DNA of 64,000 bases from an uncultured Prevotellaceae bacterium (GTDB taxonomy: Bacteria > Bacteroidota > Bacteroidia > Bacteroidales > Muribaculaceae): positions 40,584 to 104,583 of the forward strand of contig ONRP01000006.1 in the NCBI GenBank assembly GCA_900320245.1. The letters are read 5' to 3'. Of this stretch, positions 3,648 to 31,203 are shown in pieces; the stretch's first letter is position 1, and each line of letters begins with the position of its first letter. The notes below the pieces were generated by a model. That model saw nothing but the letters and a program-made list of their open reading frames with translations. It made no database searches and was not told the DNA's origin. Both the position numbers and the translations under genes were made by a program.

Positions 3648-4562
3648 TTATTCGTCGCCGAGGGCATCCATCAGTTCGTCGGGCGTATAGTCCAGCACTA
3701 TGGGGTTGTCCTCGTCACCGGGTGCTCTCAACTGAACCTGCAGGCCGCGTCCCGTCTGGACCAACAAACCGAGGAATATAAGGTTTGAATCGTCCTCGGT
3801 CAACGACTGCAAAAATACGGGCTTGAACAAATACATCATATCGCGATACTCATTCACATCGGCAAAGTCGTCGGAAGTCATGGTCATCACGACCCGCTTG
3901 GCATTGGGGTCAAGCCATACGTGGGCATCCATATCGAGGCCATCCGACATGTATTCATCCATCACATCAACGAGTTTCTTGAGCGTCGTCTCGGGATCGT
4001 CATCGTCGGCAAAGTTTAAACCATCGTCAACAAGAGGCTTGACCGAGCCATCTCTTGACGAGCCACCGCTGGCATGCTCCTCGATGGCGCGGCGCATCTC
4101 GCTGGGAGTGTATATGAGGCGAGCAGCATTGTCGATGTCTTTGTCATTGTAAATACTCACCTCAAGGCTACGTCCTGTGTTGATGATGACATTGAACAAC
4201 GCGCTGATCGCGCCGTCCTCGTCGTCATCGAACAAGGTTGACATGAATACACCTTTCATCAAATCGGTCATACCGGACGACATGTCACTAACATCGACGC
4301 CCAGGTTATCGCCGTCGATCAGCATCACAACCTTATTATTATAATCATCCTTGAGGACCTTTATATAATCACCCATGTTCTCATAGGCATTGTTGAGGAT
4401 GGTGATTGTCATGTCGAGTTTCTGCTCGGGGGTCTTGGCGCCCAGCAACTCAAGGGCTTCGTCGAAATCGTCGGGGGCGCACACTGGTGCCTGGGCGGCA
4501 CGTGAATTCATCATCAGCACGGCAGCCAGGGCCACCAGCATCGTCATTAAGATTCTTTTCAT
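3648..4562 (-). CDS. Secreted protein, paralog family member 2 of 3, internally duplicated
   Basis: 304 residues with a Sec signal (MKRILMTMLVALAAVLMMNS). The mature part shows two repeats of about 130 residues. Each has a stretch with 'TGRSLEV' or 'TGRGLQV' and ends in 'YTPSEMRRAIE' or 'YTPDELMDALG'. An Asp-rich linker (residues about 170-190) joins them. The same TGRGL...Y(T/S)xxDL arrangement is at the end of the 4628-5470 protein, so all three genes are one family. It lies 65 bases from the upstream gene and 36 from the downstream one. No known domain is recognised; it is probably periplasmic. Confidence 0.75.
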   Translation of the reverse strand: MKRILMTMLVALAAVLMMNSRAAQAPVCAPDDFDEALELLGAKTPEQKLDMTITILNNAYENMGDYIKVLKDDYNNKVVMLIDGDNLGVDVSDMSSGMTDLMKGVFMSTLFDDDEDGAISALFNVIINTGRSLEVSIYNDKDIDNAARLIYTPSEMRRAIEEHASGGSSRDGSVKPLVDDGLNFADDDDPETTLKKLVDVMDEYMSDGLDMDAHVWLDPNAKRVVMTMTSDDFADVNEYRDMMYLFKPVFLQSLTEDDSNLIFLGLLVQTGRGLQVQLRAPGDEDNPIVLDYTPDELMDALGDE

Positions 4563-4627
4563 AATTGTTTCAGTTTTAGTGATTTAAGTAATATTTAATG
4601 TTCATTATTGTCGTTTGCCATCACCTA

Positions 4628-5470
4628 TCAATCCCACAACCTCTCACACATGATGAAGAGGTCATCATTGCTGTAGCGCAGCGTCCAGGGAGTACTCTCG
4701 CCCGGGAACTCATACAGACGGAACCAGAGCCCGCGTCCCGTGGCTGCAATAGTATTGATAAAGGCCAACCAGTCAGAGCCGATGTCGGCGTTCATCATCT
4801 GGGACAGAAACACTTCCTTAAGGTCTATATTCTCCTCGTCCTCGGGGCTCAAGGGGTCCAATCCGGGTCCCACCAGCAGCGACACGATTACCGCATTGTT
4901 GCTGTCGTCGATGCGTACACTGTTATGAGGGTCCTCGGCACGCACCTTGGCATCGGCCTTGTCAACCATCTCGCTGAGCAGGTCCTCGTTGATTTCGTCA
5001 AGTTGCGATTTAGCCTCCTGCTCGCTGGGGCTGTATTTCATATAAGCCATTGTCAACTCGTCGGTAGAAAACAGCACCGTAGCCGCCACCGCATCGGCCG
5101 ACATGTCCACCAGGACGAACCTCACGTCATAGCCGACATACCCCGCCAAGCGCAACATCTCGGAGAAAAAATCGCTCTTCATCCAGACCGACATGAGGAA
5201 ATCCTTGTAACGGAAGTAGGTGTCTTCATCATCCAGATCAGGAATCTCAGACGGCTGAAAACCAGAGGACATCATCAACTCTCCCCTGGAATCATCAAGC
5301 CACACCCGTGCATAGGGGTCATCTTCGTTGCCCTGCAAGGCGTCATTGGCCGTTTCAACCATCTCACGCAGCGATTGCTCCGGGTCGTAGCCCTGGGCAG
5401 ACGCCGTGGTCGGCACGCAATAGAGTGCCATCATCAACACACACAGTAACGCAAAGGTAATCTTCTTCAT
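4628..5470 (-). CDS. Secreted protein, paralog family member 1 of 3
   Basis: 280 residues from the ATG at 5470. An earlier in-frame ATG at 5485 is rejected because it lies only about 10 bases after the -7 promoter box (5495-5502) and would precede the typical MKK signal start. The signal peptide is MKKITFALLCVLMMALYC, cleaved near ASAQ. The C-terminal 'ATGRGLWFRLYEFPGE...LRYSNDDL' matches the repeat of its neighbour. It is the first gene of a three-gene operon of paralogs. No enzymatic motif is visible and the function is unknown. Confidence 0.75.
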   Translation of the reverse strand: MKKITFALLCVLMMALYCVPTTASAQGYDPEQSLREMVETANDALQGNEDDPYARVWLDDSRGELMMSSGFQPSEIPDLDDEDTYFRYKDFLMSVWMKSDFFSEMLRLAGYVGYDVRFVLVDMSADAVAATVLFSTDELTMAYMKYSPSEQEAKSQLDEINEDLLSEMVDKADAKVRAEDPHNSVRIDDSNNAVIVSLLVGPGLDPLSPEDEENIDLKEVFLSQMMNADIGSDWLAFINTIAATGRGLWFRLYEFPGESTPWTLRYSNDDLFIMCERLWD

Positions 5471-27309: not shown

Positions 27310-27383
27310 AAGATAGGCGGCGCCTCAACAATGCAAGAAAAATGGCTTTTTCTTGCCATTGTATTCAGCTTGCGCTATCTTTG
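27310..27383 (+). promoter_or_regulatory. Promoter of first NUC1 gene, diverged copy of a dispersed promoter repeat
   Basis: TTG (27353-27355) and TATCTTTG (27376-27383) are 20 bases apart. The stretch starts AAGATAGGC and ends GCTTGCGCTATCTTTG, like the repeats at 37078-37158 and 53037-53206. The next gene's ATG follows the -7 box by only four bases. Confidence 0.6.
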
Positions 27384-27387
27384 CATC

Positions 27388-28224
27388 ATGGCGAACAAAA
27401 CAGAGCAGTTGTGGCAGCGGTGGGGCGACACTGTCAGGTTCCTCGGGTGGGGCTTGACGGTGGTTATGGTATGCTTTTTGCTGTATCGCATCGCGATGAG
27501 AGATACTGCGACACATCTGGCGCCCCTGAGCGCAGCCAGCCGCGACAGCCTGATGACCGTCGGCGTGCCCGGCGGCATGAGCGACACGCTGCTGAGGCGC
27601 GACGCCTTTGAGGTGCACTTCAACCCCGAGCGCGGCATCGCCAACTGCACTGCCTATGAGTTCGTCATCAATGAACTCAACGGGACAGCAGAGCGCAGCA
27701 ATGAGTTCGTCCAAGAGGCGGGCGTCAACGGCTGCCCCTCGCCCGACGACTACAGCGACAGCGGCATGGACCGCGGCCATCTGGTGCCTGCCGCCGACCT
27801 CAAGTGGGACGAGGAAGCCATGCGCCAGTCGTTCCTGCTCACCAACGTGTGCCCGATGCACAAAGCCCTCAACGAGGGCGGCTGGGCCAAACTAGAGGAG
27901 AAAGTGCGCGAGTGGACGGCCCGCGACAGCGCCCTGCTGGTTTTCACCGGCCCCGTCGTGGACGTGGGCGACACGATGCGTCTCAACGGCAAGGTCGTGG
28001 TGCCGGGCGCCTACTACAAGATCGTGATGGCCCCGTGTGTGCGTCCCGTGCGCGTCATTGCTTTCATCTACCCCAACGGCCATAGCAGCGGCCGCCTGCA
28101 ACAGTATGCCGTGAGCATCGACGAGATAGAGCGCCGCACGGGCCTGGACTTCTTCCCCACCCTGCCCCAAGACGAGCAACACCGCCTGGAGAGCGCGGTG
28201 CACCTCGACGCCTGGCTCAACTGA
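27388..28224 (+). CDS. DNA/RNA non-specific endonuclease (NUC1 family), membrane-anchored
   Basis: 278 residues from ATG 27388; the earlier in-frame ATG at 27331 lies upstream of the promoter -7 box. One transmembrane helix (about 15-33, 'GWGLTVVMVCFLLYRIAM') leads to a beta-beta-alpha-metal nuclease domain. The motif 'MDRGHLVPAADLKWDEEAM' has the catalytic DRGH, and 'SFLLTNVCPMHKALNEGGW' the metal-ligand Asn. Non-specific nucleases of this type degrade DNA and RNA outside the cytoplasm. A paralog follows 67 bases later and a third is at 52137-53015. The start appears leaderless. Confidence 0.92.
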   Translation: MANKTEQLWQRWGDTVRFLGWGLTVVMVCFLLYRIAMRDTATHLAPLSAASRDSLMTVGVPGGMSDTLLRRDAFEVHFNPERGIANCTAYEFVINELNGTAERSNEFVQEAGVNGCPSPDDYSDSGMDRGHLVPAADLKWDEEAMRQSFLLTNVCPMHKALNEGGWAKLEEKVREWTARDSALLVFTGPVVDVGDTMRLNGKVVVPGAYYKIVMAPCVRPVRVIAFIYPNGHSSGRLQQYAVSIDEIERRTGLDFFPTLPQDEQHRLESAVHLDAWLN

Positions 28225-28291: not shown

Positions 28292-29212
28292 TTGAGAATG
28301 AAACATTGTTTTAAAATCTGGATTCTTGTTGCAGCGATGGTGCTGGGCGGTGCCCTGCCGCCGCAAGTGACAGGTGACAACGTCATCACCTCGCAGTGGT
28401 GTGCCCAAGCCAAGAACAAGCACAGCAAAGCGAAGAAACAGAAACAGCCCAAAAAGCAGAAGCAGAAAAAAGCCAAGACAAAGAAACCCAAGCAGCCAAG
28501 CAGCGGCACGGCCGTGAAGCCCGCAGCCACAACCAGCGGCTCAGCGCTTGCCGTGAGCATTCCCCGCGGGGTGGCCAACCAGGTACTGCAGTACCAAAGC
28601 ATCAGGGTGAACTTCAACCCGTCGTTGAGGATTCCTAACTGCGTAGCCTATGAACTGACGGCGACGATGGTCGACATGGCCGATGCCCCGGGCCACGAGA
28701 ACCGCAAGAACTACAACTATGCCCGCGACCCCAAGGTCAAAGAGTGCCCCGAGAACTGGGAATACCGCGGCAGCGGCTACAGCCGTGGGCATATGGCGCC
28801 CGCGATGGACATGCGATGGGACAAGACCGCAATGGCGCAGTGCTTCTACATGACCAACATGTGTCCCCAGGACACCAAACTCAACAATGACCACTGGCGC
28901 GTGCTCGAGGAGAAAGTGCACCGCTGGGCCAAGCGTGACAAGCGCATCCTGGTCTTCACCGGACCCATCATGGGTAAGAGCCCCAAGAGAATCGGCAAGA
29001 ACAAGGCCGACATCGCCGTGCCCGACGCCTTCTTCAAGGTGCTGTACGCTCCTGACCAGGGGCGCGCCATCGCCTTCATCTACCCCAACCAGCCCTGCCC
29101 CGGCGGCATCGGCAAGTATGCCGTCACAGTCGCCGAAGTGGAGCGCCGCACGGGCCTCACCTTCTCGAGCGACATCCCTAAGCGGCAGTGCAAAGTCGCC
29201 GATTGGGAATAA
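28292..29212 (+). CDS. DNA/RNA non-specific endonuclease (NUC1 family), secreted
   Basis: 306 residues. An N-terminal hydrophobic segment (about 8-28) is followed by a very Lys/Gln-rich stretch (about 40-72) and then the nuclease domain. The catalytic motif reads 'YSRGHMAPAMDMRWDKTAM' (Ser instead of Asp before RGH), with 'YMTNMCPQDTKLNNDHW' for the metal. It is closer to the 52137-53015 protein than to its immediate neighbour. The basic linker may bind nucleic acid or the cell surface. Confidence 0.9.
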   Translation: MRMKHCFKIWILVAAMVLGGALPPQVTGDNVITSQWCAQAKNKHSKAKKQKQPKKQKQKKAKTKKPKQPSSGTAVKPAATTSGSALAVSIPRGVANQVLQYQSIRVNFNPSLRIPNCVAYELTATMVDMADAPGHENRKNYNYARDPKVKECPENWEYRGSGYSRGHMAPAMDMRWDKTAMAQCFYMTNMCPQDTKLNNDHWRVLEEKVHRWAKRDKRILVFTGPIMGKSPKRIGKNKADIAVPDAFFKVLYAPDQGRAIAFIYPNQPCPGGIGKYAVTVAEVERRTGLTFSSDIPKRQCKVADWE

Positions 29213-29335: not shown

Positions 29336-31018
29336 CTAGAGGGCGAGGCGCAGCCCGAGGTGGCCGTCCTTGAGCGTCTGGTGGTAGTAGTTCCTGTGCG
29401 ACACACGGCAGCGCACACCGTCATGGCCATAACTGCCGCCACGGTCCACGCGGAGAGAGCCCGAAGTTGGACCCGTAGGATTTGTCTGAGCGCCACCCGT
29501 GTAACTGCCCCACGAATCCTGGCACCATTCATACACGTTGCCACTCATATCATAGATGCCCAATTCATTGGGTGCCTTGGTGGCGACAGGCTGTATGGTA
29601 GAGGTAGTGCTAGTACCATCCCAATACCATGCGACCTCGTTGAGGTCGTTGCTGCCAGCATATTTATAGCCCAGGCTCTTGTTGCCGCCACGGGCTGCAT
29701 ATTCCCACTCGGCCTCGGTGGGCAGGCGGAAAGTCTTTCCTGTCAACTCGTTCAATTCAGCGACGAACGTCTGACAATCTTCCCAAGAGACTTGTTCCAC
29801 GGGATGTTGCAGGTTGCCCTGGGAGTAACTAGGATTGCTGCCCATCACAGCCTGCCATAGTTCTTGCGTCACCTCGGTCTGGCCGATGCTGTAACTGGAT
29901 AAGGTTACTTGATGAGTGGGATATTCTTCACTACCAGCGTCGCTGCCCTGCTCGGCAGTCGCACCCATCGTGAATGTGCCGCCCTCGACAGTCACCATCG
30001 TAAAGGTCACGCCATTGACGGTAAAGGTCTCGGTCCCTGGCGGATTGAGGTATAGGGCGAGGCGCAGCCCGATGCTGACGTGCGTGTACGACGGGCTGTT
30101 GTAGCCCCGGCACGACACCCGGTGGTCCGGGACGTAGCTGAGCCAACTGCCGCCACGGTCCACGCGCTTAGAGCCCGAATCTGGACCCGTTGGGTTCGTC
30201 TGAGCGTCACTCGTGTAACTGCCGTACCAATCCTGACACCATTCCCACACATTGCCACTCATGTCATAGATGCCCAATTCATTGGGTGCCTTAGTAGCGA
30301 CAGGCTTAGTATCATTGGGGCTGTTATTCCAGCACCATGCGACCTCATTGAGGTCGTTGCTGCCAGCATATTTATAGCCCTGGCTCTTGTTGCCGCCACG
30401 GGCGGCATATTCCCACTCGGCCTCGGTGGGCAGGCGGAAAGCCATGCCAGTCAACTCGTTCAATTTATTGACAAATGTCTGGCAATCGTTCCAGGAGACC
30501 CCCTCCACAGGACGCTGCAGGTCGCTATGGAAGTTACTCGGATTGTTGCCCATCACAGCCTGCCATAGTTCTTGCGTCACCTCGGTCTGGCCGATGCAAT
30601 AACTCGACAATGTCACCTGATGGGCTGGCTTCTCAATATCGCTGGCTTCTGTGTCATCATCGCTTGCACCCATCATGAATGTGCCGCCCTCGACAGTCAC
30701 CATCGTAAAGGTCACGCCATTGACGGTAAAGGTCACGGTCCCGGGCGGATTGGGGTCGATGGCGCCCAGCACGATGCTAATGAGCGTGGTCACATCGTTG
30801 ATGTCGACCATGCCGTCTTCAAACACATCGGCTGCCACAGTGTCGATAGGATCACCGGGTATGCCCAGCACAAAGCCTATCAGGTCCGTCACATCGTTAA
30901 TGTCCACATAACTGTCGCTATTCACGTCACCCAACTTTACATTGTCGGCACTTGCGGTTTGCGGCAACAAAGCCGCTAACAACAAAATGAGAGATAGTAA
31001 TGCTTTTTTCATTGTCAT
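29336..31018 (-). CDS. Secreted dockerin-like protein with two tandem FGE/C-type-lectin domains
   Basis: 560 residues. A signal peptide (MTMKKALLSLILLLAALLPQ) precedes two dockerin-like calcium repeats (about 28-88). Then come two copies of an FGE-sulfatase (SUMF1-like) domain, about 100-325 and 335-560, each opening with 'VTVEGGTFxMGA' and ending 'GLRLAL'. Shared marks are 'GQTEVTQELWQAVMG', 'FRLPTEAEWEYAARGG' and 'GIYDMSGNVxEWCQD'. True sulfatase-activating activity is unlikely; this fold also carries the hypervariable ligand-binding faces of diversity-generating retroelements. The ends of both domains differ almost only at first and second codon positions (see findings). It stands alone. 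Confidence 0.9.
   Translation of the reverse strand: MTMKKALLSLILLLAALLPQTASADNVKLGDVNSDSYVDINDVTDLIGFVLGIPGDPIDTVAADVFEDGMVDINDVTTLISIVLGAIDPNPPGTVTFTVNGVTFTMVTVEGGTFMMGASDDDTEASDIEKPAHQVTLSSYCIGQTEVTQELWQAVMGNNPSNFHSDLQRPVEGVSWNDCQTFVNKLNELTGMAFRLPTEAEWEYAARGGNKSQGYKYAGSNDLNEVAWCWNNSPNDTKPVATKAPNELGIYDMSGNVWEWCQDWYGSYTSDAQTNPTGPDSGSKRVDRGGSWLSYVPDHRVSCRGYNSPSYTHVSIGLRLALYLNPPGTETFTVNGVTFTMVTVEGGTFTMGATAEQGSDAGSEEYPTHQVTLSSYSIGQTEVTQELWQAVMGSNPSYSQGNLQHPVEQVSWEDCQTFVAELNELTGKTFRLPTEAEWEYAARGGNKSLGYKYAGSNDLNEVAWYWDGTSTTSTIQPVATKAPNELGIYDMSGNVYEWCQDSWGSYTGGAQTNPTGPTSGSLRVDRGGSYGHDGVRCRVSHRNYYHQTLKDGHLGLRLAL
29340..29431 (-). repeat. Variable region 2 (DGR-like), at the 3' end of the FGE protein gene
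   Basis: 92 bases ending in the constant GGGCTGCGCCTCGCCCT, directly before the stop. The codon series is rich in NNC codons at surface positions. Compared with 30054-30145 it changes mainly first and second codon bases. Position at the very 3' end of a C-type-lectin gene is normal for a DGR target. Confidence 0.65.
30054..30145 (-). repeat. Variable region 1 (DGR-like), end of the first FGE domain
   Basis: Same length and same constant 17-base end as the copy 714 bases away. The codons between are mostly different in their first two bases. Confidence 0.65.
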
Positions 31019-31082
31019 TTTGGTTTAAGAAATGATTAATTTGCTTTCAAGTTCTCAAAAATACAAAAAAATTTGGAGAACC

Positions 31083-31186
31083 AGTATTTTTCTGCGTCTT
31101 TTTAGGGCATTATGCTTTCTTTTTATCAAAAACCATTATTTTTCTGCGTCTTTTTAGGGCATAATGGTTTCTTTTTATCAAAAACC
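31083..31186. repeat. Tandem repeat, 52 bases twice
   Basis: 31083-31134 and 31135-31186 differ at only four or so positions; each contains CTGCGTCTTTTTAGGGCAT and ends TTTTTATCAAAAACC. A third copy starts but stops after a few bases. It lies upstream of the FGE protein gene in the non-coding gap 31019-31285. Confidence 0.8.
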
Positions 31187-31203
31187 AGTATTGTCCGGGG
31201 AAA

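What the first reader, a model, noticed from the sequence alone, without database searches (positions are those of the whole stretch)
29340..30145. Two DGR-like variable regions in one tandem FGE/C-type-lectin protein
Seen: the 92-base ends of the two FGE domains (30054-30145 and 29340-29431) share the 17-base GGGCTGCGCCTCGCCCT and equal length, but differ strongly before it. From the eighth codon after 'GGS' to that end (19 codons) I count 23 differences; 22 are at codon positions 1 or 2 and one at position 3. Nearly all fit A in a common template, mostly AAC codons read as NNC. Ordinary divergence would show the reverse. Known: DGRs mutate adenines by error-prone RT and their targets often have this fold with the variable region at the 3' end. 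Inferred: this gene is a remote target with an unusual internal second variable region. No RT, Avd or template is in the window.
Basis: partly seen in the sequence, partly recalled or inferred. Interest (0 to 1): 0.88.

Follow-up and report, generated by a model that had tools for sequence, protein, structure and literature searches.

The report
Twin hypermutation scars without their mutator
A probably secreted protein of a gut bacterium carries two copies of a lectin-like domain whose variable loops look as if they were scrambled by a known bacterial hypermutation system, but that system was not found in the genome, so the gene looks like an inherited leftover of past hypermutation.

Summary
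In the gene at 29336-31018 (-), a dockerin plus two FGE/C-type-lectin domains, the two domain ends differ at 23 bases over 19 codons, 22 at codon positions 1/2; in the rest of the domains the split is 50:50 (Fisher p=3e-5). At the 12 codons that are AAC in DGR templates of two congeners, VR1 has third-base C at 12/12 and VR2 at 11/12, gene body 0.35; given the amino acids p=1.8e-5 and 5e-4. The closest solved structure is a Treponema variable protein. DGR origin is well supported. A currently active remote target is not: no DGR RT and no template was found in this 90%-complete genome or in two species carrying the gene in the same neighbourhood, and VR2 is almost unchanged in all three, though VR1 differs between two of them, mostly at positions 1/2. 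Of 81 tested FGE ends of the genus 42 keep the signature, in 24 genomes, 20 without a DGR-type RT. Several VRs per target and leftover targets are both in print. Best reading: a retained, tandem-duplicated product of past DGR activity; new member of a known kind.

The parts
29336..31018 (-). target gene, 560 aa: hydrophobic N-terminus, dockerin, two tandem FGE-sulfatase (C-type-lectin) domains
   Evidence: ORF; Pfam FGE-sulfatase 2.5e-98, two stretches, and Dockerin_1 1.9e-5. Signal peptide read by eye, not tested.
30773..30934 (-). dockerin type I domain (residues 29-82)
   Evidence: Pfam PF00404
30053..30748 (-). FGE/CLec domain 1
   Evidence: place G000:C38:70636-71331; Pfam
30071..30145 (-). 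VR1, internal variable region; clean codon-1/2 signature in 30071-30127
30054..30070 (-). conserved 17-base tail of VR1
29339..30043 (-). FGE/CLec domain 2; best solved match 2Y3C (T. denticola variable protein 1)
29357..29431 (-). VR2, C-terminal variable region; clean codon-1/2 signature in 29357-29413
29340..29356 (-). conserved 17-base tail of VR2, next to the stop codon
31079..31192 (.). 52-bp tandem repeat (2.2 copies) just upstream of the gene; role unknown, may not belong

Best explanation
The two domain ends are variable regions written in the past by a diversity-generating retroelement (DGR) of the FGE type: an AAC-rich template is copied by an error-prone RT with changes at A and replaces the 3' end of a CLec-domain coding stretch. 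The cassette is no longer detectable. The products were kept, the gene now holds two such domains in tandem, and it is inherited and recombined like an ordinary gene. The protein is probably secreted and dockerin-anchored, with two different fixed binding surfaces. Shown: two CLec-type domains, the NNC skeleton, templates with RT in two congeners, near-invariant VR2, no RT or template found here. Inferred: the past mutagenesis itself, secretion, ligand binding, order of events.
For: 22 of 23 VR1/VR2 differences at codon positions 1/2 against 50 of 100 in the rest. NNC skeleton 12/12 and 11/12; p=1.8e-5 and 5e-4 given the amino acids, VR1 heading the list of 81 with L147 level to two digits. 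DGRs of the same domain family in G083 and G017: over codons 5-28 the VRs differ from the template only at A sites (L060 14/27 A, 0/45 non-A; L064 16/27, 0/45; L072 15/28, 0/44), and so does a gene on another contig of G017 (L153 12/28, 0/44). In G051 (98% complete, not in the DGR-RT list) an FGE end (L183) differs from the G083 template at 13/27 A and 2/45 non-A sites: a signature without an RT found. No DGR RT in G000, G059, G080; RVT_1 does detect the G083 RT (51.9 bits, cut-off 29.6). Same neighbourhood in G080 and G059. VR2 has 0 differences at template-AAC positions 1/2 and 1 other base against each ortholog over codons 10-33, plus one GTG/GGG just upstream in G059. Best sequence and fold match 2Y3C.
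Against: No known template fits: against 5 FGE-type template-like sequences VR1 mismatches at 14-17 and VR2 at 15-19 of 48-51 non-A sites, so the parent template is inferred. VR1 and VR2 may come from slightly different templates. Non-A-type changes exist: G080 VR1 has an extra codon, TCG/TTG, TAC/TTA and GGG/GGT differences. Domain 2 differs between G000 and G080 at 16 bases in 232 codons (2.3%) while pepT nearby differs by about 10%, so recombination has acted here and VR2's sameness may partly reflect a recently shared allele. Assembly only 90% complete.
Confidence: 0.7

Rival explanations
1. Active remote DGR target: the RT/template cassette is in the roughly 10% of the genome missing from the assembly, or on an unbinned phage or mobile element, and still rewrites VR1 (and perhaps VR2).
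For: Genome 90% complete in 73 contigs. VR1 differs between G000 and G080 at 17 of 69 bases, 15 at codon positions 1/2. Remote targeting is real in G017. In PB-PSB1 the VRs of one target vary unequally (PMC10907252 section 10).
Against: No cassette found in G000, G080 (96% complete) or G059 (82%; completeness); VR2 near-invariant in all three; G080 VR1 carries an extra codon and non-A changes; viral contigs: 11 of 11 hits of one exact template pattern were another sequence and a second pattern gave 0.
Confidence: 0.15
2. No DGR at all: positive selection and exchange among many FGE paralogs diversified the loops, and third bases stayed C through codon bias.
For: The genus has many FGE paralogs (115 places at E<=1e-85 in 27 of 35 genomes). 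NNY codons in the body of this gene are already about 60% C. 39 of 81 FGE ends do not pass the skeleton test.
Against: Amino-acid-conditioned p=1.8e-5 for VR1. Of 10 standard-length FGE ends of this genome only VR1, VR2 and L008 pass; for example L013 has 2/12, L004 5/12, L016 5/12. Template/RT cassettes for this family exist in congeners.
Confidence: 0.1
3. The VRs were written in another lineage and the gene, or single domains, came in by recombination, so this lineage need never have held the cassette (a variant of the best reading, not exclusive with it).
For: Domain 2 is more alike between G000 and G080 than pepT nearby; a one-domain version sits in the same neighbourhood in G059; PMC4891356 names acquisition of a target alone as an alternative for T. 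denticola SP32 (passage).
Against: The shared neighbourhood in three species favours long residence; no donor identified; no domain tree was built.
Confidence: 0.3

Closest known systems
Treponema denticola DGR variable protein (PDB 2Y3C; known as TvpA, recalled) and its paralogs
   Same: Best sequence match (9.2e-35) and fold match (1.2e-15, TMq 0.76); isolates that lack RT and TR still carry target genes, read there as remnants (PMC4891356, passages)
   Different: Here two domains in one chain, a dockerin, and no identified template
   Same: Same domain end; templates read RGGSWNNNARNCRVSNRNNN...LGLRLA, RT beside them
   Different: RT and template lie beside single-VR targets; their templates do not match the window VRs at all non-A sites
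Thiohalocapsa PB-PSB1 DGR 4/5 targets with three tandem CLec domains
   Same: Several VRs in one target, written in trans, VRs of unequal activity (PMC10907252, passages and section 10)
   Different: vWA-CLec conflict-system proteins with a matching template in the genome
DGRs with several VRs in one target ORF (31 of 271 multi-VR DGRs, Yan et al. 2019)
   Same: More than one VR in one ORF; sulfatase-modifying targets named (PMC6642488, passages)
   Different: Those were called as DGRs together with their RT and template

Membership tests
DGR variable protein (target) | C-type-lectin/FGE fold (usual scaffold) | tested here: met
   Pfam FGE-sulfatase; 2Y3C best in sequence and fold; model mean pLDDT 75, below 50 in three segments including 220-227
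DGR variable protein (target) | variable codons derived from AAY-type template codons (changes at positions 1/2, third base kept) | tested here: met
   22/23 at positions 1/2; NNC 12/12 and 11/12; p given amino acids 1.8e-5 and 5e-4
DGR variable protein (target) | template repeat that matches the VR at all non-A sites | tested here: not met
   No exact template pattern in G000. The G083 template region as DNA query gave 8 hits in G000: two at the window VRs, one at the FGE end on C34, one inside an ABC-type ATPase frame on C57, one inside an ordinary frame on C31 and three short weak ones. 14-19 non-A mismatches to the 5 template-like sequences.
DGR system | DGR reverse transcriptase in the genome | tested here: not met
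   No RVT_1 match; no match to the 8-sequence DGR-RT profile A1 at E<=0.01. Assembly 90% complete.
DGR system | accessory protein Avd | tested here: inconclusive
   PF05635 has 6 matches, 3 over cut-off; the family also covers non-Avd four-helix proteins (recalled); around 4 of the 6 (the 3 over cut-off and C31) no RT motif and no A-biased repeat was seen
active DGR target | A-site variation among strains or reads | not testable with these tools
   One genome per species held; across species VR2 is near-invariant, VR1 is not
formylglycine-generating enzyme | catalytic cysteine pair near the C-terminus | not tested
   Feature recalled for human FGE; not mapped residue by residue here

The most novel reading that the evidence does not exclude
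Hit-and-run diversification: short-lived DGR cassettes pass through this gut genus, stamp new binding loops onto a large family of secreted FGE/CLec proteins, and are lost; the bacteria keep the results as a fixed repertoire that is then duplicated, recombined and slowly eroded. The window gene, with one near-invariant and one divergent VR, would be a two-site receptor built from two such stamps.
Probability: 0.35. Interest if true: 0.6.

Novelty: new member of a known kind. Interest (0 to 1): 0.42.

Why it matters
It suggests that DGR-made variable regions can be recognised from the codon skeleton alone, without RT or template, and that in this genus such scars are commoner than cassettes: 42 of 81 tested FGE ends, in 24 genomes, 20 of them without a DGR-type RT match (the 81 were chosen by similarity, not at random), against 2 of 101 genomes with an FGE-type template by one exact pattern. 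Surveys that start from the RT would miss these. It makes testable whether DGRs serve as passing engines that seed lasting receptor repertoires.

Tried and rejected
A cassette in the window or near FGE genes of this genome: RT-motif and A-biased-repeat scans of the window and of 14 fetched own-genome stretches found no RT motif; the only A-biased repeats (L242, G000:C57) are 7-bp tandem arrays between genes. The G083-template hit on C57 lies in an ABC-type ATPase frame. A weak template hit on G000:C31 next to a weak PF05635 match lies inside that same 255-aa frame: rejected.

Other DGRs of the genus as the source: those with the IGLRSSQ-type RT have templates that do not encode FGE ends (L070, L074-L076, L080, L081).

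Template searches: viral contigs, 11 stretches for one pattern, all of another sequence, 0 for a second. Genome contigs, 8 stretches: 5 FGE-type template-like sequences (L204, L206-L209; an RT frame was seen beside L204, L207 and L208 but not in the stretches held for L206 and L209), one FGE-type end of a Bryobacteraceae MAG (L210) and 2 unrelated (L203, L205). The L231 and L232 matches are unrelated.

Dropped before the count: one search extracted 100 strings, 4 of them second readings of the same end; the 81 of 34 residues were tested, 19 of other lengths were not; ends that the expression did not catch were not counted. Of 115 places, 90 were delivered or fetched; of the other 25 a few were held from earlier calls, the rest not looked at. 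The 81 include near-copies, such as three orthologous VR2s.

Literature: 6 searches answered, one malformed. I saw listings with starts of abstracts, and passages of PMC8144416, PMC10907252 (plus section 10), PMC7517822, PMC4891356 and PMC6642488. The listings showed no paper on dockerin-FGE DGR relics in Muribaculaceae; that speaks of these searches only.

Full report
What is there. The minus-strand gene 29336-31018 encodes 560 aa: a hydrophobic N-terminus, a dockerin and two FGE-sulfatase domains that are 72% identical. Each ends in RGGS...GLRLAL. The last 19 codons before the shared 17-base tail differ at 23 bases, 22 at codon positions 1/2. In the rest of the alignment the split is 50 to 50, Fisher p=3e-5.

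Is it more than chance? The pair alone hardly identifies A as the mutated base: 16 of 23 differences include an A, p=0.047. So I looked for outside templates. Of 101 genomes of the genus (the window's included) 43 have an RVT_1 match and 14 match a DGR-RT profile at E<1e-50 (counted). Two genomes, G083 and G017, hold a DGR whose template encodes RGGSWNNNARNCRVSNRNNN...LGLRLA beside FGE targets. There the VRs match the template at every non-A base of codons 5-28: 0/45, 0/45 and 0/44 mismatches for L060, L064 and L072; an FGE end on another contig of G017 (L153) also matches at 44 of 44. So FGE ends in this genus are written by DGRs, also at a distance. The wider scan, which includes flanks, had 16 and 17 of 21 mismatches at A for G083 and 18 of 19 for G017.

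With the 12 AAC codons of those templates as a ruler, VR1 of the window has third-base C at 12/12 and VR2 at 11/12, against 0.35 in the gene body. Given the encoded amino acids p is 1.8e-5 (top of 81) and 5e-4; 42 of 81 ends pass a 5% FDR. The 42 lie in 24 genomes, 4 with and 20 without a DGR-type RT match (mapped by hand). The 81 are those of 100 extracted strings with the standard length, from loci chosen by similarity, so the fraction is not an unbiased rate. The 39 that fail, 7 of the 10 ends of this genome among them, show that the skeleton is not a general property of FGE genes. In G051, 98% complete and without a DGR-RT match, one end (L183) is only 2/45 non-A sites away from the G083 template.

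Is it active here? No RT by RVT_1 or by the DGR profile, no template by two exact patterns, none in the window or the 14 own-genome stretches scanned. RVT_1 does detect the G083 RT (51.9 bits). The gene sits in the same neighbourhood in G080 (two domains) and G059 (one domain): the nuclease and pepT side is shared by all three, the other side by G000 and G080 only (gene names outside the window by eye). Neither has an RT match. VR2 differs from each ortholog by one base in codons 10-33, none at template-AAC positions 1/2, plus GTG/GGG just upstream in G059. VR1 differs between G000 and G080 at 17 of 69 bases, 15 at positions 1/2, but with an extra codon upstream and at least three changes that A-mutagenesis does not make. 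Domain 2 differs at 16 bases in 232 codons (2.3%), pepT nearby by 10%: recombination or transfer has touched this locus. I conclude that VR2 has not been rewritten since the three copies parted, whenever that was, and that VR1's history is open.

How it most likely works. Sequence and fold put domain 2 closest to T. denticola variable protein 1, a DGR product by recall (model of moderate confidence, low in three segments including the loop 220-227). By analogy the variable loop is a ligand-binding surface; two domains with different loops would give a two-site binder. The dockerin and a single cohesin match in the genome (E 2.9e-5) make attachment to a surface or scaffold possible, not shown.

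Relation to what is known. Several VRs in one ORF (PMC6642488, 31 of 271 multi-VR DGRs; PMC10907252, three tandem CLec domains) and targets left behind in isolates without RT and TR (PMC4891356) are in print (passages and one section). PMC8144416 says that its survey would not detect remote targets (passage). So neither the internal VR nor the orphan state is new in kind. Less expected is the number of skeleton-bearing FGE genes in genomes of one genus that have no DGR-type RT match.

Noticed in passing
27331-28224 and 28292-29212 (+): Two tandem DNA/RNA non-specific endonuclease genes (PF01223) lie next to the FGE gene and convergent to it; similar genes (by eye) flank it in G080 and G059.
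   Followed up: partly
31079-31192: A 52-bp tandem repeat (2.2 copies) sits just upstream of the FGE gene; could be a duplicated regulatory element.
   Followed up: no
L108 3345-4358 (G000:C34): An FGE paralog whose C-terminal variable end appears shifted into another frame after GGFW, next to an intact paralog at 4387-5367 whose end keeps the skeleton at 11/12 codons (L008).
   Followed up: no
L070, L074, L075, L076, L080, L081 (congeners): A second DGR type in the genus with RT motif IGLRSSQ and YCDD and N-rich, non-FGE templates; mismatches to nearby VRs at template A range from 12 of 15 to 19 of 19.
   Followed up: partly
L067, L068, L069, L071 (congeners): RTs with motif IGNITSQ carry an N-rich, template-like stretch in frame near the 5' end of the stop-to-stop RT frame; none seen in L066. 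Targets not identified, except a possible A-biased pair in L071 (8 of 9).
   Followed up: no
G078:C5:23139-23654 (L107): A short RT frame ended by a stop, without DGR motif, beside an FGE gene.
   Followed up: no
G000 whole genome: Most of the 108 matches of the window protein in its own genome cover only its dockerin part, so dockerins are very numerous, while only one cohesin match was found.
   Followed up: no
L242 4127-4244, 10616-10805, 11187-11278 (G000:C57): Intergenic 7-bp tandem arrays (unit like CTAGTCC) recur on this contig in both orientations; they mimic A-biased repeats.
   Followed up: partly
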